A DNA stretch of 64,000 nucleotides from NCBI GenBank assembly GCA_014302835.1, contig CP060294.1, positions 2,381,067 through 2,445,066 on the forward strand, read 5' to 3'. Below, in pieces: positions 7,936 through 27,371 of this stretch (the first letter of the stretch is position 1; every line of letters starts with the position of its first letter). This DNA comes from Pedobacter sp. PAMC26386 (GTDB lineage Bacteria; Bacteroidota; Bacteroidia; Sphingobacteriales; Sphingobacteriaceae). Below the pieces are notes generated by a model. It saw only the letters and a list, made by a program, of their open reading frames with translations. It did not search any database and was not told where the DNA came from. The translations under genes were made by a program, and so were the position numbers.

Positions 7936-8320
7936 ATGTTTAAATTTAAAATCCACGAAGAATATTTTCGTGAAGATGTCCTTGAATTCGTTGGCAGCGG
8001 ACAACAGCAATCCGGCATCATCTGGGGCCCAAAGGAGCCGCGATGTGTGATAGTAACATCTGGCGGGAGTTACGGCAAAAAATCAGGTTACGAAGATAAA
8101 AGAGAAAAAGATGGTACTTGGATTTATATTGGTCAAGGATCAAAAGGTGATCAAAATCCACATAATTATGCAAATGGTTTATTAACAAGCCAACAAAGGA
8201 ATGTTTTATTGTTTAGCACAAGAGATTCTACTTCAAAAGAGATCAGAGAAAGAGGTAGTCGCAAAAACAGATATAAGTTTGAAGGTATTTTTGATGTCCT
8301 TTCATGGGAAATGAGAAATG
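7936..8320 (+). pseudogene. 5' part of a modification-dependent restriction endonuclease gene (SRA-like domain), cut by an IS
   Basis: Encodes the N-terminal 128 residues of a gene whose remainder is at 10993-11462. The part holds an SRA/YDG-like base-reading domain of the ScoMcrA type: WIYIGQGSKGDQNPHNYANGLL then LLFSTRD and KFEGIFDVLSWEMRN. SRA-HNH enzymes cut DNA carrying modified cytosine, for example 5-methyl- or 5-hydroxymethylcytosine, or phosphorothioate in the ScoMcrA group. Removing the IS and one AAATG copy joins the frames exactly (385 + 470 = 855 nt, 284 residues), reading ...WEMRNVDEGERKGDKL... across the junction. The present frame instead runs into the IS and stops at 8385. 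Confidence 0.85.
8316..8320. repeat. target-site duplication, left copy (AAATG)
   Basis: AAATG directly before the IS left end is repeated at 10988-10992 directly after the right end. A 5-bp duplication fits the IS21 family, which makes 4-8 bp duplications. Confidence 0.9.
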
Positions 8321-8380
8321 TGGATATTCCACTACAAATGGGACCACCTAATGGTGCAATGTATCCCACCAAGTTCGGGG
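8321..8380. repeat. IS21 left terminal inverted repeat
   Basis: Pairs with 10929-10987. The shared core runs from ACAAATGGGACCACC to AAGTTCGGGG without mismatch. Confidence 0.9.
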
Positions 8381-8569
8381 CCTAGCGTAACAGTAAAAAG
8401 GTTATAATTTGATCAATTATTCCGCTGGAAAGTACCCCACCAGAAATAGTTGAATTTGTAAAGGACTGACATTCCGGCACAAAGTACCCCACCTTTACGC
8501 ACCTGTTTCCACTAAGAGAGAGTTAAGGGCTAATACCTAGGTTTGGTTAGTATTACCTAATCCGAAAGT

Positions 8570-10141
8570 ATGGCCAACAAACTGCTTAGTATGAACAAAA
8601 TAAGACAGATACTCATTTTTTTTGAACGGGGGGCCTCCCTGAGGTCCATAGAGAATGAGCTTAAGACAAACAGAAAAACGATTAGGCGTTATCGCGATAA
8701 ATTTCAGCAAACAGGCCATAGTTTTACTGCATTACTCCAATTAAAGGACCATCAGCTTGATGAAATCCTGGGGCTTAGCAAGCCAAAGGTAATTGAATAC
8801 CCTGAGCCCCGTAAAGCTTACTTCTCTAGTCAATTAAGCTATTATCATGAAGAATTAGCCAGGGAGGGTGTAAGCCGTCAATTGCTGTGGGGAGAATACA
8901 TCAAAGACAATCCTTCGGGCTATAAATACTCCATGTTTTGTGAACTTTTACGGGAGCATAATAAAGTTCGTAATGCTGTAATGCGTTTTGAACACCGTCC
9001 AGCAGAGATGATGCAGGTTGATTTTGCAGGAGCCCCGCTTCATTATGTGGATACTTTAACCGGAGAGCTCGTAGCCTGTCCTGTTTTTATCGCTGCATTG
9101 CCCTTCAGCAGCTATGGTTATGTGGAAGCCTTACCGAATGCAAAACTTCCCCAGGTAGTAAAAGCATTGAATAATACCCTGGAGTATCTGGGTGGGGTAC
9201 CATTAGGTGCCAAATCGGATAACATGAAGCAATGGGTAACCAAGAGCTGCAGGTATGAGCCAACCTTTACAGATATGTTAGCACAATGGGCCAGCCACAA
9301 CAACATTGCTTTATATGCCTCAAGGCCCTACAAGCCAAAGGATAAGCCAGCCGTAGAGAACTCGGTGAAGATTGCTTACCTGCGTATTTATGCTACGTTA
9401 CGGAACCAGACTTTCTATAGCCTGGCTGAGCTGAATAAGGCCATAAAAGAGAAGTTGGAGCTGCATCATAAAATGAACTTTCAGAAAAAGACCATCAGTC
9501 GTGAAGAATTATTCATGGAACAGGAAAAGTCACATTTACAGGCACTTCCCCAATCGAGCTATACGATCAAACACTATACAAAATCAAAAGTTCAGAAGAA
9601 CTACCATGTAATTGTTGGTGAAGACTGGCACTTTTACAGCGTTCCCTGCCGCTATATCGGTAAAGAGGTGCGTATTACATATTGTGCTGACACCGTTGAG
9701 ATCTACCACGATAGCCACCGGATTGCCCTGCACACCAGAAGTTACCGGAGCCATCACTATACCACTATTAAGGAACACATGCCAGAATCCCATCAGGCAT
9801 TCTCAGCGCAGCGTGGCTGGAGCCCGGAATATTACCTGCAAAAAGCAACGGATAATGGCCCCAGCACTTATGACTTCATGATGAAAATCATGGAAAGCAA
9901 GCAGGTTATTGAGCAGGCCTATTCCTCTTGCATGGGCATACTCCGGCTGATCAAGGCCTATGGTCCCATTCGTACCGAAGCGGCCTGTAAAAGAGGATTA
10001 AAAGGATCAAAGTTCCGCTATACAGTTATAAAAAACATCCTGGAGAACAATATGGATCAGTTGGAAGATCAACCCTGTCAGGAATACCGTATTCCGGTTC
10101 ATGTCAACCTAAGAGGTCCGGAAACCTATCATAACAACTAA
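8570..10141 (+). CDS. istA: IS21-family transposase IstA
   Basis: A 523-residue DDE transposase. An N-terminal helix-turn-helix (about residues 9-45, FFERGASLRSIENELKTNRKTIRRY) precedes the rve catalytic core, with the acidic triad at D151 (MMQVDFAG), D217 (GAKSDNMKQW) and E263 (KPKDKPAVENSVK). A beta-barrel C-terminal part follows (YHVIVGEDWHFYSVP). It cuts and joins the element ends, with IstB as ATPase helper. All three catalytic residues are present and the frame is intact. istB starts 14 bp downstream. Length is normal for IstA. Confidence 0.97.
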   Translation: MANKLLSMNKIRQILIFFERGASLRSIENELKTNRKTIRRYRDKFQQTGHSFTALLQLKDHQLDEILGLSKPKVIEYPEPRKAYFSSQLSYYHEELAREGVSRQLLWGEYIKDNPSGYKYSMFCELLREHNKVRNAVMRFEHRPAEMMQVDFAGAPLHYVDTLTGELVACPVFIAALPFSSYGYVEALPNAKLPQVVKALNNTLEYLGGVPLGAKSDNMKQWVTKSCRYEPTFTDMLAQWASHNNIALYASRPYKPKDKPAVENSVKIAYLRIYATLRNQTFYSLAELNKAIKEKLELHHKMNFQKKTISREELFMEQEKSHLQALPQSSYTIKHYTKSKVQKNYHVIVGEDWHFYSVPCRYIGKEVRITYCADTVEIYHDSHRIALHTRSYRSHHYTTIKEHMPESHQAFSAQRGWSPEYYLQKATDNGPSTYDFMMKIMESKQVIEQAYSSCMGILRLIKAYGPIRTEAACKRGLKGSKFRYTVIKNILENNMDQLEDQPCQEYRIPVHVNLRGPETYHNN

Positions 10142-10155
10142 AAAACACTTTAAAA

Positions 10156-10887
10156 ATGAATACACAAAACACATTAGGGCAGTTAAAAACGCTCAAACTA
10201 AATGGGATGGCTAAACGTTACGAGGCCATTCTTTCACTTCCTGTACACGAGCTGCAGGATGTGCACTCCCTGTTAGGGATAATCACCCAGGCAGAGGTAG
10301 AGCACCGGGACCACACCCGCACAAAAATGCTGCTTAAAGTGAGTAAGCTCCGTTATCATGCCCTCCCTGAAGACATACTTTGTAATGCGGAAAGGGGAAT
10401 TACCAGGGAACAGGTACTGAGATTATCTGATGGAATGTTCATTGAAAAAGGACAAAATGTACTCATATCCGGTGCGACTGGTTGCGGTAAAAGTTTTCTG
10501 GCCTGCGCTCTGGGACGCAGTGCCTGCCTGCTTGGATACCGAACCTTATACTTTAGCATGAACAAGTTTCTGGAGGCGCTGGCCCAGGCCAGGCTGGATG
10601 GAACTTACCTGAAGTGGATAAAGGGTATTTCAGCCAACCGCTTGCTCATACTGGATGACTTTGGACTCAAAGAACTCACCAATGATGCTCGGATTGCACT
10701 GTTGGATATCCTGGAGGACAGGTATGGTAATGGGGCCACCATCATTACTTCTCAGCTCCCTACAGACAGCTGGTATACTTTCATTGATGAACCAACGTTA
10801 GCCGATGCAATAATGGACAGATTGTCAGCTTCTGCACATAGAATTACTTTAACTGGAAAGTCTCTGAGGAATAAAAAAAATCATTAG
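10156..10887 (+). CDS. istB: IS21-family helper ATPase IstB
   Basis: A 243-residue AAA+ ATPase of the DnaA/DnaC-like IstB group. Walker A is GATGCGKS (residues 106-113) and Walker B is LLILDDFGL. A sensor region ATIITSQLPTDSW and the C-terminal ADAIMDRLSASAHRITLTGKSLR are standard IstB features. IstB regulates target choice and activates IstA. The gene is complete and follows istA in the same element. Its C-terminal block helped identify a second, fossil istB near 15.6 kb. Confidence 0.97.
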   Translation: MNTQNTLGQLKTLKLNGMAKRYEAILSLPVHELQDVHSLLGIITQAEVEHRDHTRTKMLLKVSKLRYHALPEDILCNAERGITREQVLRLSDGMFIEKGQNVLISGATGCGKSFLACALGRSACLLGYRTLYFSMNKFLEALAQARLDGTYLKWIKGISANRLLILDDFGLKELTNDARIALLDILEDRYGNGATIITSQLPTDSWYTFIDEPTLADAIMDRLSASAHRITLTGKSLRNKKNH

Positions 10888-10928: not shown

Positions 10929-10987
10929 CCCCGAACTTGGTGGGATACATTGCACCATTAGGTGGTCCCATTTGTGCGGAATATCCA
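10929..10987. repeat. IS21 right terminal inverted repeat
   Basis: Reverse complement of the left end at 8321-8380; ends in CCA at 10985-10987, right before the second AAATG. Confidence 0.9.
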
Positions 10988-10992
10988 AAATG
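10988..10992. repeat. target-site duplication, right copy (AAATG)
   Basis: Second copy of the 5-bp duplication, immediately followed by the rest of the interrupted host gene. Confidence 0.9.
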
Positions 10993-11462
10993 TAGATGAA
11001 GGAGAAAGAAAAGGTGATAAACTAGTTGCATGTACTTTAAATCCAGTAAACAGTATTTTTAATGATTTTGAGATTGAATGTTTAAAACCACTAGAAAAGA
11101 AAATTAGTCTGGCTGAATTGGGTAGGAAAATTATGGCTAATCAGAAACCTATTGATTCAAACAAAAAATATACGGTTCAAGAATATAGAGAAAGAAGTCA
11201 GGATGTTAAGACATATGCGCTTTTGAGAGCAGATGGTATTTGCGAATTATGTGATAAGCCCGCTCCTTTTATTGTTGGAAATGGAGTTCCTTTTCTAGAA
11301 GTTCATCATATTTTTAGATTAGCGGATGATGGCCCTGATCTCCCTAAAAATGTTGCTGCTTTATGCCCAAATTGTCACAGAGAGGCTCATTTTGGATGGA
11401 AAAGAGAAAAGTTAAAAAATAGTTTGTATGAGAAAATAAGTTTAAAAAATAGATACATCTGA
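10993..11462 (+). pseudogene. 3' part of the interrupted SRA-HNH restriction endonuclease gene
   Basis: Continues the frame broken at 8320. It encodes a linker (VDEGERKGDKLVACTLN) and a complete McrA-like HNH nuclease domain: CELC, then FLEVHHIFRLADDGPD, NVAALCPNCHREAHFG. The two CxxC pairs bind structural zinc and the HH/N/H residues form the catalytic ββα-metal site. An ATG read out of the IS end (10962) could still give a 166-residue HNH protein, so a fragment with the nuclease but without the reader domain might be made; this is speculation. TGA stop at 11460-11462. Confidence 0.85.
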
Positions 11463-13627: not shown

Positions 13628-15223
13628 ATGACAGCGATTAAACCCACAATCTATTTGATTAAGGACACAATAAAAGATCCAAAGCAAATATTTAAAAATA
13701 AATCTGGTTTAAAATCGGAAGAAAAAGATGGTATTACCCTATTCTATAAAAAAAGTCACACCATTACACCCGATTGGGCATATTTTCTCGCATCCCATTT
13801 TACCGTAGGCATGAGTCCGTTCAAGAACTCCTCATCCTATGCTGTATTAGTGCTTGAGGTAGAAAAAAGATTGCTAGCTATACCCCTTGGATATGGGTTG
13901 CATTTAATTGATTTGACTAAAACGGAATACAATTTCGGATTAAAGACGGCACTTAATTGTATTCCAAAGGAGGAGATAAGGCAGGTCGACACCACCACCC
14001 CAGAAATTAATTCGCAGAAAACAAAAAAACAGGCAGTACTTGGGTCGACTCCAGAACAGTTCGGCATCAACAAGCAAAAAGATATTCTTCGGGGTATCGT
14101 AGGCAAATTACCGAAAGATCACGAACTAGGTGAAGCACTAGATGGCAAGGATAGCTTAAAAGTCGGAAAAGGCATCGAGGGATTTGGCAAACTGAAATCA
14201 TTATGCAAAAAAGTCCTGACTCACTTTGCCTCTAACCACTACAAAACCGATTATGCCTGGATTGATAACATCGCCATGGTTCGTGATAATTCGCTTGTTG
14301 AAAAACTGGTTAAACAACTTGCAAAAAACCTAAAAGGGGCAAAATTCGAAAATATGTTTTTCTCCCCACCTATTTACTATGAAACGATCTTCGATTGTAA
14401 TGGCTTTGTATTTTCTACTGGCGATGGATCAAGGCTTATCAAGAAAGAGGCACTTGCCATGCCAGAAATGTCGGATTGGAAAAAAAGCGTTGGTTCGGAA
14501 ATCAAGGAAATGTCTTATGAAAATATAGACAAGTTCAAGGTGAACATCCTAAGTGACAAAGATGTCAAGACTATGGATTGGCCACTTCAACGTTGTCTTT
14601 CTTGGGAGACTGAAATAAGTGGAACAAAATATATTCTATCTGAAGGGTCTTGGTATGAGGTCGCCCCATCTTTCTTTAAAGAAATCGAGAATTTTTATCA
14701 AGCCAGAATCCTTGATCCACATGACTTTCCAATTGCTTCAAAGAGTAAGATCAAGGAAAGTGATTATAATGCAGAAATATGTGCTTCAAAGAGTAATGAC
14801 AGGTTTCTATTCGACTTGGGAAATCCAAAGTCTAAGACGCTTAGCTTGGGCAAGGACGGAAATGAAATTTGCGACGTGTTCGATATTGTGACCAAAACTT
14901 TCGTTCATATAAAGATGGGAAAAACGTCTCCATCTCTGAGCCATCTCTTCAGGCAGGGGTCCTTTAGCGGTCAAGCCCTAAAAAAGAATGAAACATATCG
15001 AAAGGATTTTGATAAATATCTTACTGCATATGGTTGTGCCCCCAACTTCATCACCGAACCTTATCTTTCATCCGATTACAAAATTATATTTGGAATCGTA
15101 CTCGGTAAAAAGCAAAAAAAGAACATCCCTTTTTTCAGCAAGGTATCTTTTAAAAACGTCGCAGATAATGATTTGGAAATATTAGGGTATGATTGCAAAT
15201 TGACTTATATTATACTTCCATAA
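13628..15223 (+). CDS. TIGR04141/DUF6119-family protein, sporadically distributed, defence-island type
   Basis: A 531-residue protein. The opening TIYLIKDTIKDPKQIF followed by YAVLVLEVEKRLLAIPLGYGLHLID and FGLKTALNCI is the typical start of the TIGR04141 'sporadically distributed' family (DUF6119). Other features are the SHLFRQGSFSGQAL segment near residue 440 and a C-terminal IIFGIVLGKK strand. Members turn up patchily in accessory islands, often near restriction or phage-defence genes. No catalytic role is established that I know of. The next frame starts 7 bp downstream, so the two are probably co-transcribed. The family call rests on pattern memory and needs a profile search. Confidence 0.7.
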   Translation: MTAIKPTIYLIKDTIKDPKQIFKNKSGLKSEEKDGITLFYKKSHTITPDWAYFLASHFTVGMSPFKNSSSYAVLVLEVEKRLLAIPLGYGLHLIDLTKTEYNFGLKTALNCIPKEEIRQVDTTTPEINSQKTKKQAVLGSTPEQFGINKQKDILRGIVGKLPKDHELGEALDGKDSLKVGKGIEGFGKLKSLCKKVLTHFASNHYKTDYAWIDNIAMVRDNSLVEKLVKQLAKNLKGAKFENMFFSPPIYYETIFDCNGFVFSTGDGSRLIKKEALAMPEMSDWKKSVGSEIKEMSYENIDKFKVNILSDKDVKTMDWPLQRCLSWETEISGTKYILSEGSWYEVAPSFFKEIENFYQARILDPHDFPIASKSKIKESDYNAEICASKSNDRFLFDLGNPKSKTLSLGKDGNEICDVFDIVTKTFVHIKMGKTSPSLSHLFRQGSFSGQALKKNETYRKDFDKYLTAYGCAPNFITEPYLSSDYKIIFGIVLGKKQKKNIPFFSKVSFKNVADNDLEILGYDCKLTYIILP

Positions 15224-15511: not shown

Positions 15512-15677
15512 ATTGAAGATAGGCACGCTTGCAAGGCGACTATTATTGCCAGTCAACTGCCAGTTGTAAGTTGATGTAATTGGTGAAAATACAATTATCG
15601 ATGCACTGCTCGACAAAATGGTGCATACATCCTACAGAATTGAACTAAAAGGTGAAAGTCTAAGAAAAAAGAGGTGA
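15512..15677 (+). pseudogene. fossil istB (IS21-family) 3' end
   Basis: Conceptual translation, with one frame change near 15570-15580, gives IEDRHACKATIIASQLPV then GENTIIDALLDKMVHTSYR and IELKGESLRKKR, which is the standard IstB C-terminal sequence. The frame ends at a TGA (15675-15677). Everything upstream in the element (istA and most of istB) is gone. It is clearly a different IS21 lineage from the intact element at 8.3 kb. Confidence 0.85.
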
Positions 15678-15867: not shown

Positions 15868-17775
15868 CTACCCTTTCCTTACCCTACTCCTAAAATATCT
15901 TTCTGTATCCTTATCCATAAAATAAACATAACAAGCTTTCATTCCGCGTCCCAAAAGAACCCGATAAGTATTCTTCACTAATTGCAGAAAATCCTGGCTA
16001 CTCTTCACCTGACTATCATAACTATTTCCAGAAAATCCTTCCCACTCACCAATATCAGGGTTATACTTAAGATCCTTCCCAAAGATAATTCCAGCATACT
16101 CAAATTCAAATCCTTGAGCAGTATAAACACATCCAATCTGATCAATCCCACCAGCTTCATAAGCCCAGAACTGTGATTTAGGAATTCCCTTTCTCATCCC
16201 CGTCAAACCTTCCTGCGCGTTCCATGGACGTTTAAATTCATCTATTTCGACATCGTTGATTAAATCATTATTTTCATCAAGTCGTTTAGACCACGGCCAG
16301 CAAAAACCAGCCATAACTCTTGCTGTATACCCTTCTTCAGCTCTAGCTCTTATTGCTTTTTCTAAGGCATCCGGAGAATCCATGATAACAAACTCAAAAT
16401 CAGGTTCATTTATCCACTCTGTAGTAGCTGTTTTTCTGATATGTAAAGTATGATCAATCCAATCGCTATATCGCTCAGAACCTCCATTACGAAATTGAGC
16501 TTCTAAATCATATTCATATACTTTACATCCTGCTAATTCTGCTTGCTCTTTTATAAAAGCAGAAGATCCTATCTCTCCTTTACGAACAGCCTGATAATCA
16601 TCGATAAAGAAAACTGATACCTTAGCGGCGTTCAACAGATCTTGAACTTGTGGTTTACCAGTTGATTTAAATGGATACCCGGTTTTCTCTCTGATCCGGT
16701 GCGCTTCATCCATAAGTAGTACATCAATCTCATTTGGCTTAGCCTCTCCATAAGACATAAAATACTTTAATAAGCTCTTTGAGTTATCTCCTAATATTTT
16801 CCTTAAAGTCTCAGTAAATGCTTTTGAACCTGTTGCATATTGAGTATTGAAATTCAATGCAGCAAGATCAGCTAGTAATTGCAAACCAATAACAGATTTA
16901 CCCGTTCCTGCACCACCTTTAACTATAATTGCATGCTTTTGTTTATGTTCTAACCCTTTGCGTACAATACTCATTACGGTATCATATACAATCAATTGCT
17001 CATCAAGAAGAATATAATCTTCTTTAGTTTTAACAGTTCCAAATAGTTTTAATTCTCCTTTAAGCTTTTGTTTAATAACAGTAGAAACCTGTTTAAGTAG
17101 CTTTTTAGAGGGGCGCATTCGACTTTGCTCAATTTCGGCAAGAATATCCATACCATCACCTTGATCTACCTTTTCGGTGATGAAAGCAGTTAACTGCAAT
17201 CGATCCTCAGAAGAATACATAGGGAAACAATTAATACTCTTTTGAAAACGACTATCAGTAAGAACATCGTCCTTCTCAATAGTATAATTATGAAGATAAC
17301 TGCATGCAGAAAGTCCTATTGGAGAATCACCCTCATAAAATACAGTACTGTTATCTTGAAGATAATACATATAGTTCCCTACCTGTACACTAGGATGCAA
17401 TAAAGAGCGATTACCTCCTCCTACCCATGTAACAACATAATCGCTATCATAATCAGTTAGTGTACACTGCTCCCACTGTTTGAGTTCTATAATCACAGCG
17501 TTTCTCTTTTGCTCTTTGTCTTTACCGCAAATAATCACATCGATACGCTTTCCGCTTAGCGGAAGTTTATACTCGACCATTATTCCCTGGTCAGTAAGAT
17601 TTGCACGTTCTAAAACATCAGATAGACGAAAAAGAGAGTTTCTCCATGACCTAACCTCGTTAATAGATGGTTTATAACCAAATTGTTTCAAGAACTCAGT
17701 TTCTAACAGACCTGCTATTTGATTGTCAACATTAAGCGCTATAAAATTGGCCGATGAGCCCGCATATAGCCTCAT
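15868..17775 (-). CDS. DUF2075 P-loop ATPase with N-terminal nuclease-like domain
   Basis: A 635-residue protein. The N-terminus resembles a PD-(D/E)xK nuclease: KRIDVIICG (D79) and AVIIELKQW (E97, K99). The C-terminal half is DUF2075, a superfamily-1-type NTPase: Walker A KGGAGTGKS (residues 287-294), Walker B LLMDEAHRIREKTG (D356, E357), FFIDDYQAVRKGEIG, the arginine region LEAQFRNGGSE, and QGFEFEYAGIIFG plus NTYRVLLGRGMKACYVYF near the end. It probably acts on DNA or RNA with ATP; substrate unknown. It follows the MazG-like gene with a 4-nt overlap, so the two are translationally coupled. That pairing in a defence-like island suggests an anti-phage role, as inference. Confidence 0.85.
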   Translation of the reverse strand: MRLYAGSSANFIALNVDNQIAGLLETEFLKQFGYKPSINEVRSWRNSLFRLSDVLERANLTDQGIMVEYKLPLSGKRIDVIICGKDKEQKRNAVIIELKQWEQCTLTDYDSDYVVTWVGGGNRSLLHPSVQVGNYMYYLQDNSTVFYEGDSPIGLSACSYLHNYTIEKDDVLTDSRFQKSINCFPMYSSEDRLQLTAFITEKVDQGDGMDILAEIEQSRMRPSKKLLKQVSTVIKQKLKGELKLFGTVKTKEDYILLDEQLIVYDTVMSIVRKGLEHKQKHAIIVKGGAGTGKSVIGLQLLADLAALNFNTQYATGSKAFTETLRKILGDNSKSLLKYFMSYGEAKPNEIDVLLMDEAHRIREKTGYPFKSTGKPQVQDLLNAAKVSVFFIDDYQAVRKGEIGSSAFIKEQAELAGCKVYEYDLEAQFRNGGSERYSDWIDHTLHIRKTATTEWINEPDFEFVIMDSPDALEKAIRARAEEGYTARVMAGFCWPWSKRLDENNDLINDVEIDEFKRPWNAQEGLTGMRKGIPKSQFWAYEAGGIDQIGCVYTAQGFEFEYAGIIFGKDLKYNPDIGEWEGFSGNSYDSQVKSSQDFLQLVKNTYRVLLGRGMKACYVYFMDKDTERYFRSRVRKG

Positions 17776-18101
17776 AGTTCGTTATATTTTTTTGATGTTC
17801 CTCTAGATTTATCTACAGGATATTTTTCTGCATTCTTTTTGATCTTATTTGATACAATTTCATTAATATCCAGATCATATTTCTCTGCAAGGAGTAATGC
17901 ATAAGCGAATATATCAGCAAGTTCCTCTTTGATTTTCTCAATGTCAGCTTCCTCAGACTTTTTCCACAAAAATACCTCATTGAGTTCTGCCGCTTCTATT
18001 GATAAGGCAAGTGCCAGATCTTTAGGATTATGGAACTGCTCCCAGTCCCTATCATTCCTGAATTTTATTAATTCGCTTTGTAATTCTTTCCAGTTATTCA
18101 T
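17772..18101 (-). CDS. MazG-like nucleotide pyrophosphohydrolase
   Basis: A 109-residue all-helical protein of the MazG-like/dCTPase (RS21-C6) group. The metal-binding signature is EAAELNEVF (E36-E39 region) and KEELADIFAYALLLAEKYDLD, that is, the ExxE...ExxD layout that holds magnesium. The family hydrolyses (d)NTPs to monophosphate and pyrophosphate. The gene ends inside the start of the DUF2075 gene (ATGA-type overlap). In a defence context it could deplete or sanitise nucleotides, including modified ones used by phages; inferred only. Upstream is a 310-bp A/T-rich spacer shared with a divergent HNH gene. Confidence 0.85.
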   Translation of the reverse strand: MNNWKELQSELIKFRNDRDWEQFHNPKDLALALSIEAAELNEVFLWKKSEEADIEKIKEELADIFAYALLLAEKYDLDINEIVSNKIKKNAEKYPVDKSRGTSKKYNEL

Positions 18102-18414
18102 TGATCATAAAGATATCAAATTCAAAGAAATTTATACCATCCTGTCAGTTATTCTATATTATCATGAAAAATTACAGATTAGATTAATATCAATCAATAG
18201 TCAATAACTATTACATTTAATAGGCATTACGTATATTTTTTGTCAAATAAAAAAATACATATAGGTGTTTAATTAACTTTGTTGAAAATGAGAATTCAAA
18301 TTGCAAACATCAATAACCAAATCATATGACCTATTACTCACTTTAGATTCTTCGGATTCTAAATGAATTAGTTAATCAATCATGATAATAGTTTACAAGT
18401 AATAGCTAATCTAA
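18102..18414. other. divergent promoter region
   Basis: About 310 bp of very A/T-rich sequence between the divergent MazG-like and HNH genes. No frame or RNA gene seen. TAATTAACTTTGTTG near 18270 resembles Bacteroidota promoter -7 elements (TAnnTTTG) for the HNH gene. Confidence 0.35.
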
Positions 18415-19515
18415 ATGAACAATCTACCAGCTGATAAAGCCCTGCCCGTTCACATTCTGTCTTCTTGTTTTAACAATACCTCAGCAACATATAAGTTCTA
18501 CTGGTTTTTATCAATTATAGAATCTATTGAAAAAGGCAGTTATAAAATCGATAAACAGACACTCTTTGCTAGAATGGTAGCCAATGCTTGGTATACGGTT
18601 AACTATTTCCACCTTTCTTTCGGTGCACAGGATCAGTTTCAAATTGCTATTAAGTTATTGATTGAATTAGAGGGTCTAGCTATTGATGAGAAGAAAGACA
18701 AAATAATTCAAAAGCTAATATTCTCTGATAAAAAGGATACTATAAAAACACTTAAGCATTTTGATGGGGAGGTCCCCTATCGTTTCTTAAGCCCTTGGTT
18801 TAACAATATAAAAGGGAATAAACAAGCCACATATAATCTGTCTCAATCATTTAGTAACGATTGTCTCTATGCTGTAAATGAGAGTTCAGTGATTATCAAT
18901 CCTAAATGGATTTCCTATTTAACTGAGAATAGCGGAATCCTAAAAGCATTTTGTTACTGGCATCTATGTCTTTACGTACAGAAACATAATCCAAATGTAC
19001 CCGATATTGCTAACAAGCTATTTAAACCACCACATAGAAATAGTTTACTGAAACCTAGAAAGGAATTTTGGGATATTGTCATTAAAAAAACTGGCGCTGT
19101 GAAATGTATTTATACAAAGAACAATCTAGACATTAATGAATATGTTGTCGATCACTTTGTTCCGTTTGCATTTGTGTCACATGATTTGATGTGGAATCTA
19201 ATCCCAGCAGATAAAAGTTTCAATTGTAGCAAGTCAGATAAACTTCCTCCCTTTGATGAATATTTCAATGGATATTTTGACCTACAACAGCTAGCATTAA
19301 AAACAGTAAATGATTTATTCCCTAAGAACATATTCCTACAAGACTACTTAACTATCCTGCCTGATTTATCTTCTTTAAATAATTTAAGCAAGGATGAGCT
19401 TAAAAACAGGTTTAAGGATAACATATATCCCTTGATTACTATCGCTGCAAATAATGGCTTTGAATACATGACTAAAACTACCGAGTTAGACTACTACGAA
19501 GATGGTCTTTCTTGA
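18415..19515 (+). CDS. HNH endonuclease-domain protein
   Basis: A 366-residue protein. The first 220 residues are helical with no motif I know. The HNH nuclease lies at about residues 235-285: CIYTKNNL, then VVDHFVPFAFVSHDLMWNLIPADKSFNCSKSDKLP, with the DH, N and N/K positions of an HNH finger but without the second CxxC pair. Proteins with DHF[IVL]P[WF]xFV.HDxxWNLxP are common in accessory islands of diverse bacteria. It stands between the MazG/DUF2075 pair and a membrane protein. A short sequence near its 3' end (19341-19382) recurs at 20627-20668 in a rearrangement scar. Confidence 0.75.
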   Translation: MNNLPADKALPVHILSSCFNNTSATYKFYWFLSIIESIEKGSYKIDKQTLFARMVANAWYTVNYFHLSFGAQDQFQIAIKLLIELEGLAIDEKKDKIIQKLIFSDKKDTIKTLKHFDGEVPYRFLSPWFNNIKGNKQATYNLSQSFSNDCLYAVNESSVIINPKWISYLTENSGILKAFCYWHLCLYVQKHNPNVPDIANKLFKPPHRNSLLKPRKEFWDIVIKKTGAVKCIYTKNNLDINEYVVDHFVPFAFVSHDLMWNLIPADKSFNCSKSDKLPPFDEYFNGYFDLQQLALKTVNDLFPKNIFLQDYLTILPDLSSLNNLSKDELKNRFKDNIYPLITIAANNGFEYMTKTTELDYYEDGLS

Positions 19516-20841: not shown

Positions 20842-23800
20842 ATGCAGGAAAATATATTACCAAAACTAGAAGCCTCGAGAAAAGAATTACTTGATCTCGG
20901 TATGCGTAACACACTTTTGAACTATAAAACACCTAAAGCAAGAGGCCTGCGGATTGTTCAGGAAAAGTCTTCTTCCATCTACGAAATTCTGGTCAAACAA
21001 AATAAAGCCATGACTTTCTTGGGAAGACCAGGTAAAGACGACGATGATGATCTGCTTGAATTACCAGAACTTACCGTTGAAGAACTAAAAGACGCTCAGG
21101 AAGATACACGCCTTCAAACAAATGAAAAGGAACAGAAGCTTCAAACAAAGATTCTCAACACCTATTATTTCGCAAAATCAAGCATAGAAGAACAAGGTGT
21201 AAACATTCTATACCTAGCCTTAGGTATGCTAAACTGGTATGAAAAAGGAAATACAGAAGATTCCCGGATAGCACCACTCCTATTAATTCCTGTTACATTG
21301 GAACGCTCCAGTGCCAATGAAAGATTTAGAATACGTTTTACCGGTGGTGATATTGGTGCTAACATTTCACTTCAAGCTAAAATGATGGCTGATTTCAATA
21401 TCACCATCCCCGATCTCCCTGAACCAGATGACTTCAATGTAAATGACTATTTCACTGATATAGAAAAAAGAATTGGCCATCAACCATCATGGAAAATAGA
21501 GACTGATGCCATGGAGCTAGGCTTCTTTTCTTTTGGAAAGTTCATGATCTACCATGATTTAGATAGTAGTAAATGGCCAGAAGACAATAAACCTTTTGAC
21601 CACCCCATTCTTAAATCATTATTCGGAGAAGGCTTTAATGAGTTACAACCCACCGCTACCGAAGAACATAATCTAGATGCAGATACCCAAGCACATGAAC
21701 TATTTCATGTTGTTGACGCAGATAGTTCACAAGTATTAGCCATGCTAGCCGTAAATGAAGGCCGTAACATGGTCATCCAGGGCCCTCCAGGAACAGGTAA
21801 ATCACAAACCATAACAAACATCATAGCCAACGCAGTTGGGCAAGGTAAAAAAGTCTTGTTTGTTGCAGAAAAAATGGCCGCTCTTGAAGTTGTAAAACGA
21901 AGATTAGATTCAATTAATCTGGGTGAAACCTGCCTGGAACTTCATAGCCATAAAGCCAATAAAAAAGACTTGCATGAGGAACTAAAAAGAGTCTTAGACT
22001 TAGGAAAACCATTTTTAACTCACCTGCAAGATGAAATTTCTCAACTAGACAGTTACAAGGAATCCCTTAACAGCTATTGCAACGCCGTTAACGGACTAAT
22101 TGAGCAAAGCGGACTTTCTGCGCAAAAGATTATCGGTTACTTACTGGAAATCAATGAGCAATATAAAGGTGCTACACTTCCTTCCATTCCGATTGACAAT
22201 ATAGAATCATGGAATGCAGATACAATGCGTCAGGCATCAGCTATGGCAGATCTGATTGAAGCCAGATTAAAAGATATTGGTGCTCCATCCAAATTACTTT
22301 TCTACGGAACAAGATTAACATTATTCTTGCCACATGAAAGTGATGCCACCATTCAAATTCTAGACAATTCCGTTACAGGAATCCACAACTTACTCATACA
22401 AACTGGTGAAGCCTCTAAATTTATCGGAATAGAAATCCCATCATCTACAACACTACTCTCAAAACTAGTCACCCTAATGGAATTTCTGGCCGAAAGTCCA
22501 GATTTGAGAGAAATAGCTGTAAAAGATCCGGCATGGGTACAAAACCATGAAGACGTATTAGAGTTATTTCAAACGGGTAAACAGATTGCAGAACTCCATT
22601 TAAAATACGAAAATATCTTTCAACCAGAAGCATGGAATCAAGATGTTCTCATGTTACGCCAAACCTTAGTTGATAACGGACACAAGTGGTATAAGTTTCT
22701 GATTGGAGATTACAAAAGAGCTGTTAAACAGTTAGCATCTTTTACAAAAACAGCTTTACCAAATGACCTGGATAGCAAATTAAAATATATTGACGATATC
22801 CTTCTAGCAAAACGTTTAGGCTATACATTAGATGAGAACTCCAGTCTTGCCAGTCGCTTATTTGGTAACAGATGGAGAATGCTAAAAACCAATTGGGATG
22901 CTCTCGAAGGTGTCTTGGTTTTCATGTCACAGCTACACCGCAATATTTCAGAAGGCAAATACCCCACCCTTGCTTTAGATTTTTTAAGTCGGAACGAAAG
23001 CCCTTCGACAACCAAAGAAATCCTGAATAAACTAAAAAACCTAATCAGCGTTTATCAAACTAATACCACTGAAGTATTAAAAAAGCTCGATCTGGATGAA
23101 AAAATATCAGGCACAGATCAATCTTTCCAGGATTTACCATTTAATGATCAAGTAATAAAACTGGGTGAATGGAAATCAAGACTGAACGAGATCCAACAAG
23201 CCGTTCAGTGGAACAATCTTACTCAATCTGCACAGAAAGAAGGTTTCGACAACCTAATTAAAGCGTCACTGAACTGGGACGATGCAGCGAACCACCTAAA
23301 AGTCTCCTTACAAAAAACATGGTATGAATATCTGATCAAAAAGATAATGACTGAAAGTCTGCCTTTACGCGGATTTGAACGGACATCACATGAAGAAATC
23401 ATAGAAAAGTTCAATAAACTTGACTTGTTAAACCTCCAATATAACAGAGCTAAAGTTGCGCTTAAACATTACGAATCTGTACCTAAACAAGAAGGCGGTG
23501 GTCAATGGAACATCCTTCGTGGCGAGTTTAACAAACGTGCGCGCCATATGCCAATCAGGAAATTAATCCAGGAAGCCGGGCTTGCCATTCAGACAATTAA
23601 ACCCGTCTTCATGATGAGTCCAATGTCTATTGCAAGTTTCCTATCTCCTGGAAGCATAGATTTTGATTTGGTCATCTTTGATGAAGCCAGTCAGGTTAAA
23701 CCTGTTGAAGCGCTAGGTGCTTTACTTAGAGGTAAACAAATCGTTGTTGTTGGCGATACGAAGCAGCTCCCTCCTACCAGTTTCTTTGATAAAATGAACT

Positions 23801-25509
23801 CTGAAACAGAGGATGAAGAAAATGTCACCGCGGATTTAGAAAGTATTTTAGGCATGTGCGATGCTCAGGGTGTTCCGCAGCGGATGTTACGCTGGCACTA
23901 CAGAAGTAGACATGAATCATTAATCAGTCTTTCTAACCATGAATTTTACGAGAATAAACTAGTCATCTTCCCAAGTCCCGGATCTAAACACCGAATGGGC
24001 CTAGCATTCCATTATTTACCAGATGCAGTCTATGATCGTGGTAAAACCCGTACTAATCCAAAAGAAGCAGAAGCAGTTGCGCTTGCAGTCATACAACATG
24101 CTTTAAAAAACCCAAAACAAACGCTTGGCGTAGTTGCATTTAGTACTGCTCAAATGCAGGCCATCCAAAATGCAGTGGAGATTAAAAGAAGACAAAACCC
24201 AGAAACTGAAAACTTTTTCAGAAGTCATAGTCATGAACCATTCTTTGTCAAAAATCTGGAAAACGTTCAGGGTGATGAACGGGATGTGATCTATATCAGC
24301 ATTGGTTATGGAAGAACCGAGGATGGTAAAGTTCCAATGAGCTTTGGACCTCTAAACAACGAGGGCGGAGAAAAACGACTAAACGTATTGATAACCCGTG
24401 CAAAATACAGATGTGAAATCTTTACAAACATCACTTCTGATGATATCAACCCTACCGCCACTACCAAATTTGGCATCAAGTCTTTAAAAAGCTTCTTATA
24501 TTATGCGCAACATGGAGCATTTGAGACAGAACAAGATTTACCAATTCCTATTAAAAGCCCTTTTGAAGATCTGATCTATGAGCGTTTAACAGCGCTGAAT
24601 TACATTGTTCGGAAGAAAGTTGGATCGGAAGGGTTTTACATTGATCTGGCTGTAGTAGATGCAGAGAACCCAGGTCGTTATTTAATTGGCATAGAATGCG
24701 ATGGAGAGTCTTATAGCAAAGCCAAATCAGCCAGAGACCGTGATAGGCTGCGCAGACAAGTCTTAGAAACCATTGGGTGGAAGATCTTTAAGGTATGGAG
24801 TACAGAGTGGTATAGAAACCCGGAAAGAGAGCTGCAAAGACTTATTGCTGCAATTGAAAAAGCTAAAGAGCAAACATCTTTAGATGATCAGGTAAAAGAA
24901 GAACTTCAACAAGAAACAACTGCTCTAGTACGAGAGGAAAAAGAAGAAGTAACGGAAGAAACCCTAACTTACAATCAAGCTGTCCTTCCAGCTGAATTAT
25001 CAGCTCAGGAGCTACATTTAGTCCCTTTTGGTAAACTGGCCGAATGGATTAGACAAGTTGTAAAGATTGAAAGCCCAGTTCATGTTGAAGAAGTAGCAAG
25101 GAGAATAGCAGATGCTTCTGGTGCATCAAAAATTGGCTCCCGTATCAGATATACGCTAAATGCTGCTACTGATTTTGCTATCACTTCTAAAATCATAGCA
25201 AGATCAGGAGATTTTTTATGGCTTCCAGAGATGGATGCTCCTGTTATTCGTGAAAGAAGCGGACTCGCTGCAAGTTCAAGAAAAATCAGCTTTATCCCAC
25301 CAGAAGAGATAGATTTAGCGGTTAAAAAAGTTGTAGAAAACTCTATTGCCATACAACAGGAAGTTGCAGTGCCTTTAGTTGCGAAGTTATTTGGAATTAA
25401 CAGGGTAACAGAAGATATCCGTAAAGAACTTTCAAGTGCAATAGATTTGACTATATCAAAAGGAATTGTGATTAAAGACGGAGAATATTTGAAGGTTAGT
25501 GCTAATTAG
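20842..25509 (+). CDS. DUF4011 / SF1 helicase / Vsr-like nuclease / DUF3320 giant protein, defence type
   Basis: A 1555-residue multidomain protein. DUF4011 covers about residues 5-200 (ELLDLGMRNTLLNYK is its hallmark). The helicase has Walker A IQGPPGTGKSQT (around 312), Walker B VIFDEASQVKP (about 940-950), VVGDTKQLPPTSFF (about 970) and late motifs NVQGDERDVIYIS (about 1140) and RLNVLITRAK (about 1178). A Vsr/DUF559-like nuclease follows at about 1240-1340 (YFIDLAVV-like FYIDLAVVDAE, IGIECDGESY, RDRLRRQVLE). DUF3320 lies near 1390-1440. I recall this architecture being reported as a single-protein anti-phage system (hhe-type), not checked here. All motifs are intact; a terminator follows. 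Confidence 0.92.
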   Translation: MQENILPKLEASRKELLDLGMRNTLLNYKTPKARGLRIVQEKSSSIYEILVKQNKAMTFLGRPGKDDDDDLLELPELTVEELKDAQEDTRLQTNEKEQKLQTKILNTYYFAKSSIEEQGVNILYLALGMLNWYEKGNTEDSRIAPLLLIPVTLERSSANERFRIRFTGGDIGANISLQAKMMADFNITIPDLPEPDDFNVNDYFTDIEKRIGHQPSWKIETDAMELGFFSFGKFMIYHDLDSSKWPEDNKPFDHPILKSLFGEGFNELQPTATEEHNLDADTQAHELFHVVDADSSQVLAMLAVNEGRNMVIQGPPGTGKSQTITNIIANAVGQGKKVLFVAEKMAALEVVKRRLDSINLGETCLELHSHKANKKDLHEELKRVLDLGKPFLTHLQDEISQLDSYKESLNSYCNAVNGLIEQSGLSAQKIIGYLLEINEQYKGATLPSIPIDNIESWNADTMRQASAMADLIEARLKDIGAPSKLLFYGTRLTLFLPHESDATIQILDNSVTGIHNLLIQTGEASKFIGIEIPSSTTLLSKLVTLMEFLAESPDLREIAVKDPAWVQNHEDVLELFQTGKQIAELHLKYENIFQPEAWNQDVLMLRQTLVDNGHKWYKFLIGDYKRAVKQLASFTKTALPNDLDSKLKYIDDILLAKRLGYTLDENSSLASRLFGNRWRMLKTNWDALEGVLVFMSQLHRNISEGKYPTLALDFLSRNESPSTTKEILNKLKNLISVYQTNTTEVLKKLDLDEKISGTDQSFQDLPFNDQVIKLGEWKSRLNEIQQAVQWNNLTQSAQKEGFDNLIKASLNWDDAANHLKVSLQKTWYEYLIKKIMTESLPLRGFERTSHEEIIEKFNKLDLLNLQYNRAKVALKHYESVPKQEGGGQWNILRGEFNKRARHMPIRKLIQEAGLAIQTIKPVFMMSPMSIASFLSPGSIDFDLVIFDEASQVKPVEALGALLRGKQIVVVGDTKQLPPTSFFDKMNSETEDEENVTADLESILGMCDAQGVPQRMLRWHYRSRHESLISLSNHEFYENKLVIFPSPGSKHRMGLAFHYLPDAVYDRGKTRTNPKEAEAVALAVIQHALKNPKQTLGVVAFSTAQMQAIQNAVEIKRRQNPETENFFRSHSHEPFFVKNLENVQGDERDVIYISIGYGRTEDGKVPMSFGPLNNEGGEKRLNVLITRAKYRCEIFTNITSDDINPTATTKFGIKSLKSFLYYAQHGAFETEQDLPIPIKSPFEDLIYERLTALNYIVRKKVGSEGFYIDLAVVDAENPGRYLIGIECDGESYSKAKSARDRDRLRRQVLETIGWKIFKVWSTEWYRNPERELQRLIAAIEKAKEQTSLDDQVKEELQQETTALVREEKEEVTEETLTYNQAVLPAELSAQELHLVPFGKLAEWIRQVVKIESPVHVEEVARRIADASGASKIGSRIRYTLNAATDFAITSKIIARSGDFLWLPEMDAPVIRERSGLAASSRKISFIPPEEIDLAVKKVVENSIAIQQEVAVPLVAKLFGINRVTEDIRKELSSAIDLTISKGIVIKDGEYLKVSAN

Positions 25510-26194: not shown

Positions 26195-26620
26195 CTAATG
26201 CATCACTTGATTTCTACTAGCAGCCTTAATGAAATGAATCAGGTTTCGTTTCTGACAATCATCAAGACTATCAATTCTCTTTAAAACAGCAGGGAACACT
26301 TTTTTATACATTCCATTATGCTTACCGACGAAAATAAAATTACTGAGTTTTAGACTGTCCATCCCGGCTAACTCTTTCCATATAGGAATGTTCTTTTTAA
26401 ACCTTGGAACATCATTTCTTAGATGACAATAACGACATTCACCCAAGTTTAATACTACAGCTTCACCTTTAGATAAATCTAGTCTACAAGAGTCCTTTTG
26501 AACAATAATTACACTTTTGACTTGTTTTGACTGACTATTATTACAAGCAAATAAGCTACAGAAAATTATTAAGCTACCTAAACTTAGCTTTATTATATTT
26601 AAACCCATTGGAGGTATCAT
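26195..26620 (-). CDS. lipoprotein with a c-type haem motif
   Basis: A 141-residue protein with a lipobox (IIFCSLFAC, lipidated C26) and one haem-attachment motif CRYCH (C62, C65, H66). The flanking ECRYCHLRND and later KHNGMYKK, with a possible methionine axial ligand, fit a small mono-haem cytochrome c anchored in the envelope. The domain is shorter than usual. An extra cysteine pair (C45 and C119-region) could bond. The gene starts inside the end of the metzincin-like gene (47-nt overlap on the same strand), which suggests co-translation. Electron-carrier or sensor role is inferred from the motif alone. Confidence 0.65.
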   Translation of the reverse strand: MIPPMGLNIIKLSLGSLIIFCSLFACNNSQSKQVKSVIIVQKDSCRLDLSKGEAVVLNLGECRYCHLRNDVPRFKKNIPIWKELAGMDSLKLSNFIFVGKHNGMYKKVFPAVLKRIDSLDDCQKRNLIHFIKAASRNQVMH

Positions 26621-27371
26621 TTAAAAAGGTTCTTAATTGGTTCACAGTATTATTACCAGGGTTAGAGTAATTCGACCTCGTCATATTCCTAAGATCGTAC
26701 ATAATAAATTGATTCATGATTGCTTTCTCTTTATTAGTAACGTTACTACCTACTTTACCAAGGTGATACATCAATCTATTTTCAAGACCATTTTCTTCTA
26801 AATCCAAAAGCCCCAAGGTGTGAAAGAATTCATGTACACCAATAAGGTTGTCTTTTTCCCATTCACTATAAATAACTGTTGCCGGGCCTCCGCTAGCTTG
26901 CGTCAGACCACCAGAGGCATGTTTTCTTCCATAAATATCCGTAAAGCGATGCCCAATATCATCTACCAATGCCAAAACAAAATCATTACCACTTAACTGG
27001 CTCAAGCTATTAATTTGGATAACCCTGGCGGTATAACTAAAATTATATCTAATACTATAAGTATGCTGTTTATTCGTAAAACTTCTTTTTGCTGAATTAT
27101 ATTCGTAAAAAATTGCCTGTTCACCATAGGCCCCACCTCTTAACTTACTCATTATCGTTTGTTCGGTAAATTTCATTAGGCTTTGGAGACGAGAGGTACT
27201 GTAAGAAGTAAGATCCAAAACTTTTAACGTAATTAAAATATCACCAGATAATGTTAATTGACCAGATCCATTGTCAGTGATCTTCAAGTTTTTACCCATT
27301 ATACCTCCAGACATATTTCTATTCTGAGCGGACGACAGACTATTATTAATTTGTTCTAAAAGCATAAACAT
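26574..27371 (-). CDS. metzincin-like zinc metalloprotease, possible toxin module
   Basis: A 265-residue protein with HEFFHTLGLLD at residues 180-190. This is the extended zinc site HExxHxxGxxD, and NRLMYHL about 10 residues later could be the Met-turn, so a metzincin fold is likely. There is no signal peptide or lipobox. The N-terminus (NGSGQLTLSGDILITLKVLD) is beta-rich and resembles the stretch before C-terminal toxin tips of RHS-type proteins, so a detached polymorphic-toxin domain is possible. The lipoprotein gene overlaps its 3' end by 47 nt. Substrate unknown; the role as toxin is inference. Confidence 0.65.
   Translation of the reverse strand: MFMLLEQINNSLSSAQNRNMSGGIMGKNLKITDNGSGQLTLSGDILITLKVLDLTSYSTSRLQSLMKFTEQTIMSKLRGGAYGEQAIFYEYNSAKRSFTNKQHTYSIRYNFSYTARVIQINSLSQLSGNDFVLALVDDIGHRFTDIYGRKHASGGLTQASGGPATVIYSEWEKDNLIGVHEFFHTLGLLDLEENGLENRLMYHLGKVGSNVTNKEKAIMNQFIMYDLRNMTRSNYSNPGNNTVNQLRTFLNDTSNGFKYNKAKFR

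What the first reader, a model, noticed from the sequence alone, without database searches (positions are those of the whole stretch)
15868..18101. Coupled MazG-like pyrophosphohydrolase and DUF2075 nuclease/ATPase: candidate anti-phage pair
The genes overlap by 4 nt. The second protein has a D79/E97-K99 nuclease-like core and complete P-loop motifs. One enzyme hydrolyses nucleotides, the other is likely to act on nucleic acid. I know of the two families being neighbours in other bacteria but no assigned function for the pair.
Basis: partly seen in the sequence, partly recalled or inferred. Interest (0 to 1): 0.6.

Follow-up and report, generated by a model that had tools for sequence, protein, structure and literature searches.

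The report
dCTP-destroying enzyme paired with nuclease-helicase
Two overlapping genes in a bacterium, one probably destroying a DNA building block and one probably cutting DNA, travel together across bacteria and archaea and tend to sit among virus-defence genes, so they look like an untested defence system.

Summary
MazG (17772-18101, -) and DUF2075 (15868-17775, -) overlap by ATGA; the D79/E97/K99 triad and helicase motifs are intact and conserved.

The tools sharpen it. The MazG is of the dCTP pyrophosphatase 1 (DCTPP1/RS21-C6) kind with its catalytic residues. DUF2075 is a PD-(D/E)XK-like nuclease fused to an SF1 helicase. MazG is the direct neighbour of 48 of 62 helicases of this class, in bacteria and archaea, and of 17 of 17 of a second class in which GIY-YIG replaces PD-(D/E)XK; a third class has it in 0 of 20. 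In Sphingobacterium gobiense, 91%-identical MazG DNA is followed by one nuclease-helicase or the other, the homology ending at the junction. Around 20 pairs, neighbours match 83+34 PADLOC models, against 5+9 around control sites; McrBC lies within 10 kb in 3 of 7 cases. The pair is patchy (16 of 145 genomes of the genus) and moves as a unit.

Best reading: an uncharacterised two-enzyme anti-phage module, a dCTP or modified-dCTP hydrolase plus an exchangeable DNA-cutting helicase. Defence and substrate are inferred, not shown. I found no paper on the pair.

The parts
17772..18101 (-). MazG-like all-alpha NTP pyrophosphohydrolase of the dCTP pyrophosphatase 1 (RS21-C6) kind, 109 aa; E36, E39, E60, D63 and W20, H24, W46 conserved
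   Evidence: Pfam PF12643 2.4e-18; PDB dCTP pyrophosphatase 1, 6sqw, 1e-17; residues conserved in 59-64 of 65 paired MazGs
15868..17775 (-). DUF2075 / Schlafen-group-3 nuclease-helicase, 635 aa
   Evidence: Pfam PF09848 1e-85; AlphaFold2 model pLDDT 86.7
17161..17775 (-). N-terminal PD-(D/E)XK-like nuclease domain, about residues 1-205, D79/E97/K99 plus Q100, W101, H127, P128, Q131, Y135
   Evidence: conserved residues; model pLDDT 90.2; VIA-align matches mostly nucleases that I know as PD-(D/E)XK, best Z 7.4
15871..17004 (-). SF1 helicase core, about residues 258-635
   Evidence: PF09848 at residues 280-621; UvrD 2is6 Z 22.1, SLFN11 7zep Z 19.4, RecD2 3gpl Z 17.7
17772..17775 (-). ATGA stop/start overlap (translational coupling inferred)
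   Evidence: sequence; -4 is the commonest spacing, 24 of 63 upstream MazGs in classes A and B
18415..19515 (+). context: HNH_4 endonuclease, divergent from the pair; its relative lies on the other side of the pair in another genome of the genus
   Evidence: 3.5e-8; DNA match L128 10626-11672, 79%
20842..25509 (+). context: ProA-type DUF4011 helicase-nuclease, a named anti-phage protein family, 2.7 kb from the MazG start
   Evidence: NCBIfam NF058533 antiphage_ProA 1546 bits, cut-off 1500; PADLOC PDC-S37 2063 bits

Best explanation
The pair is a mobile two-enzyme anti-phage module. DUF2075 is an ATP-driven helicase that loads on invading or replicating DNA and cuts it with its N-terminal PD-(D/E)XK domain. 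MazG is a dCTP pyrophosphatase of the DCTPP1 kind that works on the nucleotide pool: it hydrolyses dCTP and probably C5-modified dCTP to the monophosphate, so that the phage cannot repair, replicate or chemically shield (modified cytosine) the DNA the partner attacks. MazG acts through a metabolite, not as a tailored binding partner, which is why one MazG can serve exchangeable effectors (PD-(D/E)XK-helicase, GIY-YIG-helicase). Shown here: linkage, conserved active-site residues, effector swap, mobility, placement among defence genes. Inferred: enzyme activities, substrate, phage protection. My odds: defence role about 0.75; dCTP-type substrate about 0.7; removal of modified dCTP as the main purpose about 0.3; plain dCTP starvation about 0.3.
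For: Two-way linkage: MazG next door in 48 of 62 class A and 17 of 17 class B helicases, 0 of 20 class C; of 29 MazGs of this type in 198 Bacteroidia genomes, 17 lie beside a class A or B helicase, two of these broken; 14 of 14 intact class A copies in the genus have it. Catalytic residues kept in both proteins. MazG is closest in PDB to dCTP pyrophosphatase 1 / RS21-C6; the human enzyme hydrolyses dCTP and 5-methyl, 5-formyl and 5-halogenated forms (PMC7162842, passages). Effector swap: S. gobiense L031 12612-12982 matches L005 9632-10002 at 91.4% DNA identity and stops at the helicase start codon. Defence neighbourhood: 83+34 versus 5+9 PADLOC models; McrBC within 10 kb in 3 of 7 places, 0.03 expected; ProA in the window. 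Mobility: DNA homology to Pedobacter caeni covers 15873-18102 only; 16 of 145 genomes of the genus.
Against: 14 of 62 class A helicases have room for a MazG but none next door, and 12 of 29 MazGs of the type have no such helicase. PADLOC counts are of models, many of which hit one protein; control sites were chosen by me, not drawn at random, and are probably mostly ordinary chromosome, so part of the contrast may be accessory versus core DNA. Type I methylases: 0 of 22 near the pair, though only 0.11 were expected. SRA domains: 2 in 37 genomes, neither near the pair. Two of the three nearby McrBC loci (G048, G664) are near relatives, and McrBC was picked after I had seen McrB-like neighbours in other genomes. 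Neither protein is claimed by a whole-protein PADLOC or NCBIfam model. I know of no activity or phage test.
Confidence: 0.55

Rival explanations
1. Nucleotide-gated nuclease, working like Gabija: high (d)NTP restrains the nuclease-helicase; MazG, or the infection itself, lowers dCTP and releases it.
For: GajA is a nuclease inhibited by NTP and dNTP and proposed to be freed on their depletion (PMC8136825, abstract). A dCTP-hydrolysing partner fits such a switch, and the coupling is tight.
Against: MazG is shared between unrelated nuclease domains, so a tailored gate would have to arise repeatedly; Pfam shows no nucleotide-sensing domain besides the helicase.
Confidence: 0.15
2. DNA repair or replication-fork maintenance module: the helicase-nuclease processes damaged DNA, MazG cleans the dNTP pool. 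No role against phages.
For: UvrD/RecD2-like helicase; DCTPP1 keeps the nucleotide pool in human cells (PMC7162842).
Against: Patchy presence (16 of 145 in the genus) with broken copies in G018 and G675, movement as a unit, placement among defence genes.
Confidence: 0.15
3. Toxin-antitoxin-like pair: the nuclease-helicase is toxic and MazG neutralises it by direct binding.
For: Small upstream gene overlapping a larger effector, a common TA layout (recalled).
Against: MazG keeps its catalytic residues in 63-64 of 65. A and B MazGs are interleaved in the tree and swap partners; distances of MazG and helicase hardly correlate overall (r 0.03). 14 of 62 class A effectors stand without it.
Confidence: 0.1
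4. Competition module of mobile elements (plasmid against plasmid, or stability of an integrative element) and not anti-phage as such.
For: Occurs on plasmids: 37 plasmid records hold a relative, 22 of them over at least 80% of the query.
Against: The window's copy lies on a 4.8 Mb contig; neighbours elsewhere match phage-defence models. Chromosomal and plasmid copies were not counted against each other.
Confidence: 0.1

Closest known systems
DCTPP1 / RS21-C6 dCTP pyrophosphatase (all-alpha NTP-PPase, MazG superfamily)
   Same: Closest solved relative by sequence; the WEQFH motif, E-x-x-E, W and E-x-x-D positions align
   Different: Ours is a compact 109-residue form in an operon with a nuclease-helicase; DCTPP1 is a stand-alone pool enzyme
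Schlafen group 3 helicases (SLFN11, SLFN14)
   Same: Helicase domain in the Pfam family of that name; SLFN11 Z 19.4 (386 aligned, rmsd 15.8)
   Different: N-terminal half is a PD-(D/E)XK-like nuclease, not the Schlafen RNase core (the latter recalled)
Nhi and AbiO (PADLOC)
   Same: Weak matches over the helicase part (2.5e-10, 1.8e-11)
   Different: Partial matches only; that those systems lack a MazG partner is recalled
Gabija (GajA nuclease + GajB helicase)
   Same: Nuclease plus UvrD-like helicase, nucleotide theme
   Different: GajA is a nuclease with an ATPase-like domain (PMC8136825 abstract; its TOPRIM fold is recalled). Here nuclease and helicase are fused and the partner is a dCTPase-like protein
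Anti-phage dNTP depletion (dCTP deaminase, dGTPase; recalled, papers not held)
   Same: Would act on the dNTP pool
   Different: Here pyrophosphate removal, and tied to a DNA-cutting helicase
Predicted MazG defence domain in DefensePredictor (PMC13092281, section 8 read)
   Same: A MazG domain is named among predicted, unvalidated defence domains
   Different: The text names no partner and the figure was not visible, so identity with this pair is unknown

Membership tests
DCTPP1/RS21-C6-type dCTP pyrophosphatase | Sequence similarity over the catalytic core | tested here: met
   6sqw_A E=1e-17, residues 13-109; a chain called only 'pyrophosphatase' (4qgp) 2.4e-17; dUTPases from 6.6e-6
DCTPP1/RS21-C6-type dCTP pyrophosphatase | E-x-x-E ... 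E-x-x-D metal site and the two Trp positions | tested here: met
   E36, E39 63 and E60, D63 64 of 65; W20 63, W46 59 of 65; roles recalled
DCTPP1/RS21-C6-type dCTP pyrophosphatase | Hydrolysis of dCTP | not testable with these tools
   needs enzyme assay
SF1 helicase, SLFN-g3/DUF2075 | Pfam PF09848 over cut-off and SF1 motifs | tested here: met
   288.6 bits, cut-off 24; conserved GGxGxGK, DExHR, QFR, TxQG, R610
PD-(D/E)XK nuclease | D...(D/E)xK motif on the strands of an alpha-beta core | tested here: met
   D79 on strand 78-85, E97/K99 on strand 91-99; 62 of 62 conserved
PD-(D/E)XK nuclease | Fold match to solved members | tested here: inconclusive
   VIA best Z 7.4 (Cdn1, 130 aligned, 3.6 A), most rows nucleases of this fold (fold names recalled), but Foldseek E over 0.3
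Known PADLOC/NCBIfam defence system | Whole-protein match to a model of the system | tested here: not met
   MazG none; DUF2075 only partial weak hits in PADLOC and none in NCBIfam
Anti-phage system | Genomic enrichment among defence genes | tested here: met
   83+34 versus 5+9 PADLOC models; McrBC 3 of 7 within 10 kb; type I methylase 0 of 22 and SRA 0 of 2
Anti-phage system | Protection from phage | not testable with these tools
   experiment needed

The most novel reading that the evidence does not exclude
A modular defence in which a constant dCTP pyrophosphatase strips modified (or all) dCTP from the infected cell while exchangeable DNA-cutting helicases (PD-(D/E)XK, GIY-YIG, perhaps others) are swapped in behind it. 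Cytosine modification by phages would be countered at the precursor level, alongside McrBC-type enzymes that cut modified DNA. In the GIY-YIG version, a LexA/UmuD-like C-terminal domain with an invariant Ala-Gly, Ser and Lys would make the effector switchable by DNA damage.
Probability: 0.25. Interest if true: 0.85.

Novelty: new variant of a known kind. Interest (0 to 1): 0.6.

Why it matters
Nuclease-helicase defences and dNTP-depleting defences are both known (recalled), but a dCTPase tied by gene overlap to a DNA-cutting helicase, across bacteria and archaea, would join the two. It would give bacterial DCTPP1-like MazGs a defence role, and would suggest a way to fight phages with modified cytosine before the DNA is made. 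The effector swap at a fixed MazG gives a direct test of whether MazG acts through a metabolite.

Tried and rejected
MazG-DUF2075 fusion: L047 looked like a fusion, but it joins MazG to DUF2075 residue 394, skipping the nuclease and Walker A; read as an internal deletion or assembly fault.

Housekeeping E. coli-type MazG: set aside because the closest solved relatives by sequence are dCTP pyrophosphatases, then dUTPases. E. coli MazG itself was not compared.

Phage origin is not supported, nor excluded.

Type I restriction neighbours: 22 N6_Mtase places in 30 pair-bearing genomes, none within 20 kb; expectation only 0.11 within 10 kb, so uninformative. SRA domains: nothing near the pair.

Tight co-evolution of MazG with the helicase: Mantel r 0.03 over all 65 pairs (542 of 2000 permutations as high), 0.20 in A (7 of 2000), 0.42 in B (0 of 2000); so weak overall.

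Structure: Foldseek gave no significant hit for the N-terminal domain; VIA rows are consistent but below Z 8. P0001 has no relative of known structure by sequence at E<=1.

HEC-06 proximity (3 loci of about 9 within 10 kb in 20 genomes) was chosen after seeing it in the neighbour scan, so its P value is biased. Some of the same places also match an 'Orf5' model.

Papers: searches for DUF2075 with MazG, with defense, alone, and related terms found nothing on the pair (listings, with passages of three papers). PMC4678834 and two dNTP-depletion papers were not held.

Full report
WHAT IS THERE. The window is G000:C1:2381067-2445066 of a single-contig 4.8 Mb genome. The genus is Pedobacter by inference: G058, of the same genus, has the pair on a contig of 1707455 bases, the length of the Pedobacter caeni contig of L002.

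MazG. Pfam MazG-like 2.4e-18. The best solved relatives are dCTP pyrophosphatase 1 and RS21-C6 (1e-17) and a chain named only pyrophosphatase (2.4e-17), then dUTPases from 6.6e-6. The E-x-x-E / E-x-x-D residues E36, E39, E60, D63 are kept in 63, 63, 64 and 64 of 65 paired MazGs, W20, H24 and W46 in 63, 63 and 59 (where printed numbers are one lower). [quoted passage not shown] That the Glu/Asp bind metal and the Trp residues hold the base is recalled.

DUF2075. PF09848 (SLFN-g3_helicase) covers residues 280-621, 1e-85. The AlphaFold2 model (pLDDT 86.7) matches UvrD (Z 22.1, 312 residues, 3.7 A), SLFN11 and RecD2. The N-terminal 240 residues modelled alone (pLDDT 90.2) match mostly nucleases that I know as PD-(D/E)XK: Cdn1 Z 7.4, Can2 7.1, Kpn2I 6.7, EndoMS 6.3, a McrBC chain 5.6. 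Each is weak alone (Foldseek E over 0.3), but D79 and E97/K99 lie on neighbouring strands and are D, E, K in 62 of 62.

LINKAGE. I collected helicases by the DUF2075 sequence or PF09848, not by MazG: genome contigs (57 loci), 99 relatives, 395 genomes of the phylum (41 strong hits, of which G459 at a contig end was not fetched), and 8 of the 41 plasmid and phage records hit. From 125 long hits (those under 560 aa or not reaching the helicase end dropped) 102 remained after removing copies with identical last 400 residues; they are not phylogenetically independent. Classes were set by score against a profile of the window's class. Class A (PD-(D/E)XK, like the window): 46 with MazG directly upstream, 2 downstream, 14 without, 1 with no room. 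Class B: 17 of 17. Class C: 0 of 20, plus 1 with no room. One odd protein (L125) has none. Of the class A misses, L023 has a MazG 1.5 kb downstream and L036 one 3.6 kb upstream. Spacing is -4 in 24 of 63 upstream cases. Class A with MazG occurs, by record titles and often in metagenome bins, in Bacteroidota, Bacillota, Omnitrophota, Nitrospirota, Acidobacteriota, Actinomycetota and Pseudomonadota and in Woese-, Aenigm- and Micrarchaeota.

The reverse: in 198 Bacteroidia genomes 29 MazGs of this type were found. By my reading of the neighbour table 17 lie beside a class A or B helicase (L127, L168-L177, L179-L181, L183-L185); in L173 and L180 the helicase looks broken, in L180 about 0.55 kb off. 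The 12 others: L178 (short contig), L182, L186, L187, six (L188-L193) beside a 349-350 aa gene that in L188, the one scanned, is MraW, and L194, L195. So not all MazGs of the type are pair partners. In the window's genus 16 of 145 genomes hold a class A helicase; 14 are intact and all 14 have MazG.

EXCHANGE OF THE EFFECTOR. Class B proteins (mostly about 730 aa) carry GIY-YIG in front and an S24 peptidase-like domain behind the same helicase (Pfam on L070). In 16 of 16 full-length class B proteins an A-A-G (596-598 of L070), S634 in GESM, and K679 are invariant, the pattern I recall for LexA/UmuD self-cleavage. The MazG tree mixes A and B within Bacteroidota: supported branches force at least 5 label changes for A and 2 for B (110 columns for 72 rows, poorly resolved). 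MazG identity between A and B averages 0.57, more than within A (0.51), while helicase identity is 0.27 between and 0.47 within A. In one contig of S. gobiense, L031 (class B) 12612-12982 matches L005 (class A) 9632-10002 at 91.4% DNA identity and ends at the helicase start codon; a class A fragment (L031 10001-10894) lies 1.7 kb away. So the nuclease-helicase was exchanged behind a retained MazG, or MazG was reused. L182 has TPR - MazG - ResIII-type helicase, and gut Bacteroidales (L036, L037) and a Microcystis phage record have a TPR gene in front of MazG. A MazG that serves unrelated partners most likely acts through a small molecule.

DEFENCE NEIGHBOURHOOD. Twenty pairs (10 A, 10 B; 20 genomes) were taken with about 7.5 kb on each side (L137 cut by a contig end), and 20 control stretches from the same genomes at positions I chose. 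ORFs of 130-1800 aa, without the pair and without ORFs at the edges, were scanned against PADLOC at 1e-20. Pair side: 83 models for 90 proteins and 34 for 87, among them pAgo with SIR2, Cas1, a type II methylase, HEC-06 (3 proteins), PD-Lambda-2_B (2), HerA, SIR2, ThsB, capP, RdrB. Control: 5 for 120 and 9 for 123 (ShosA, GlgB-like, PsyrA, PDC-S03, PDC-S20, CARF_2OG, PifA, mad3). Models are redundant, repeats between the two scans were not removed, and only the first 25 were listed on the pair side, so this is a ratio of models, not proteins; controls were not matched for accessory DNA. McrBC (PF10117) occurs 7 times in 37 pair-bearing genomes; 3 lie within 10 kb (G048 and G664 at 4.4 kb, near relatives; G162 at 8.6 kb), 0.03 expected; the other four are at 40, 107 and 156 kb or on another contig. 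I chose McrBC after seeing McrB-like neighbours in L036 and L080, which are not among the 37. N6_Mtase: 0 of 22 within 20 kb (0.11 expected within 10 kb). In the window the pair is 2.7 kb from a ProA anti-phage protein. Among the public records a Priestia pair follows an MrcB_N gene overlapping MazG by 4 nt, beside type I restriction genes; two Hymenobacter DUF2075 genes without adjacent MazG follow a restriction endonuclease and a DNA methyltransferase; a Methanosphaera DUF2075 without MazG lies near BREX-4 genes and a broken Hymenobacter one near Druantia DruA. The Halalkalicoccus (with MazG) and Streptomyces (without) records show no plain defence system nearby by name.

MOBILITY. DNA similarity of the window to the P. 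caeni locus covers 15873-18102 only (77.5%). With P. foliorum (74%) and G012 (82.8%) other genes of the window are shared in other positions.

MECHANISM. I commit to a two-enzyme anti-phage module: DNA-cutting helicase plus dCTP or modified-dCTP hydrolase. The DCTPP1-like site and the McrBC neighbours make modified cytosine an attractive reason, but the McrBC numbers are small and SRA domains are not near the pair, so I hold that version at about 0.3. Rivals: Gabija-like gating (PMC8136825, abstract), repair, toxin-antitoxin, plasmid competition.

NOVELTY. Neither protein is claimed by a whole-protein PADLOC or NCBIfam model of a named system. Full-text searches found no paper on the pair. DefensePredictor (PMC13092281, section 8 read) lists a MazG domain among predicted, unvalidated defence domains without naming a partner; this pair may be in its figure, which I could not see. 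I therefore call it a new variant of a known kind.

Noticed in passing
window 7936-8385, 8570-10887, 10962-11462 (+): An ORF with a weak SAD/SRA match (2.9e-4, below cut-off, not recovered genome-wide) and an HNH ORF matching type IV restriction models (2.2e-21) flank an IS21 pair (IstA/IstB); this may be an SRA-HNH modification-dependent nuclease interrupted by the insertion sequence.
   Followed up: partly
window 13628-15223 (+): TIGR04141/DUF6119 'sporadically distributed' protein of unknown function, about 0.6 kb from the 3' end of DUF2075.
   Followed up: no
window 15512-15571 (+): Short IstB-like remnant (60% over 20 aa, E 0.012) near the 3' end of DUF2075: a possible old IS21 scar.
   Followed up: no
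window 26195-27371 (-): Two small unknown genes (141 and 265 aa, no Pfam match) whose relatives lie directly upstream of the pair in G012 (L128 6147-7307), which suggests reshuffling of the same island genes.
   Followed up: partly
L069-L076, L117-L124: GIY-YIG - DUF2075 - S24 proteins (Pfam run on L070 only) with invariant A-A-G, Ser and Lys in the tail: a possible LexA/UmuD-like self-cleaving switch on a nuclease-helicase.
   Followed up: partly
L037 7742-13583; L038, L039, L042, L045; L036 3715-13692: Gut Bacteroidales carry a four-gene run TPR protein - MazG - DUF2075 - second SF1 helicase (Pfam run on L037; the others by gene sizes). L036 has two further genes between MazG and DUF2075, one an AAA_5 protein that I read as McrB-like.
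   Followed up: partly
L182 2-3314; L194: The same MazG type with other partners: TPR - MazG - ResIII-type helicase in L182, and a TIR-domain gene beside MazG in L194.
   Followed up: no
L005, L031, L041 (one contig of Sphingobacterium gobiense): Three MazG copies in about 90 kb with an intact, a swapped and a broken helicase partner: a hotspot of effector turnover.
   Followed up: partly
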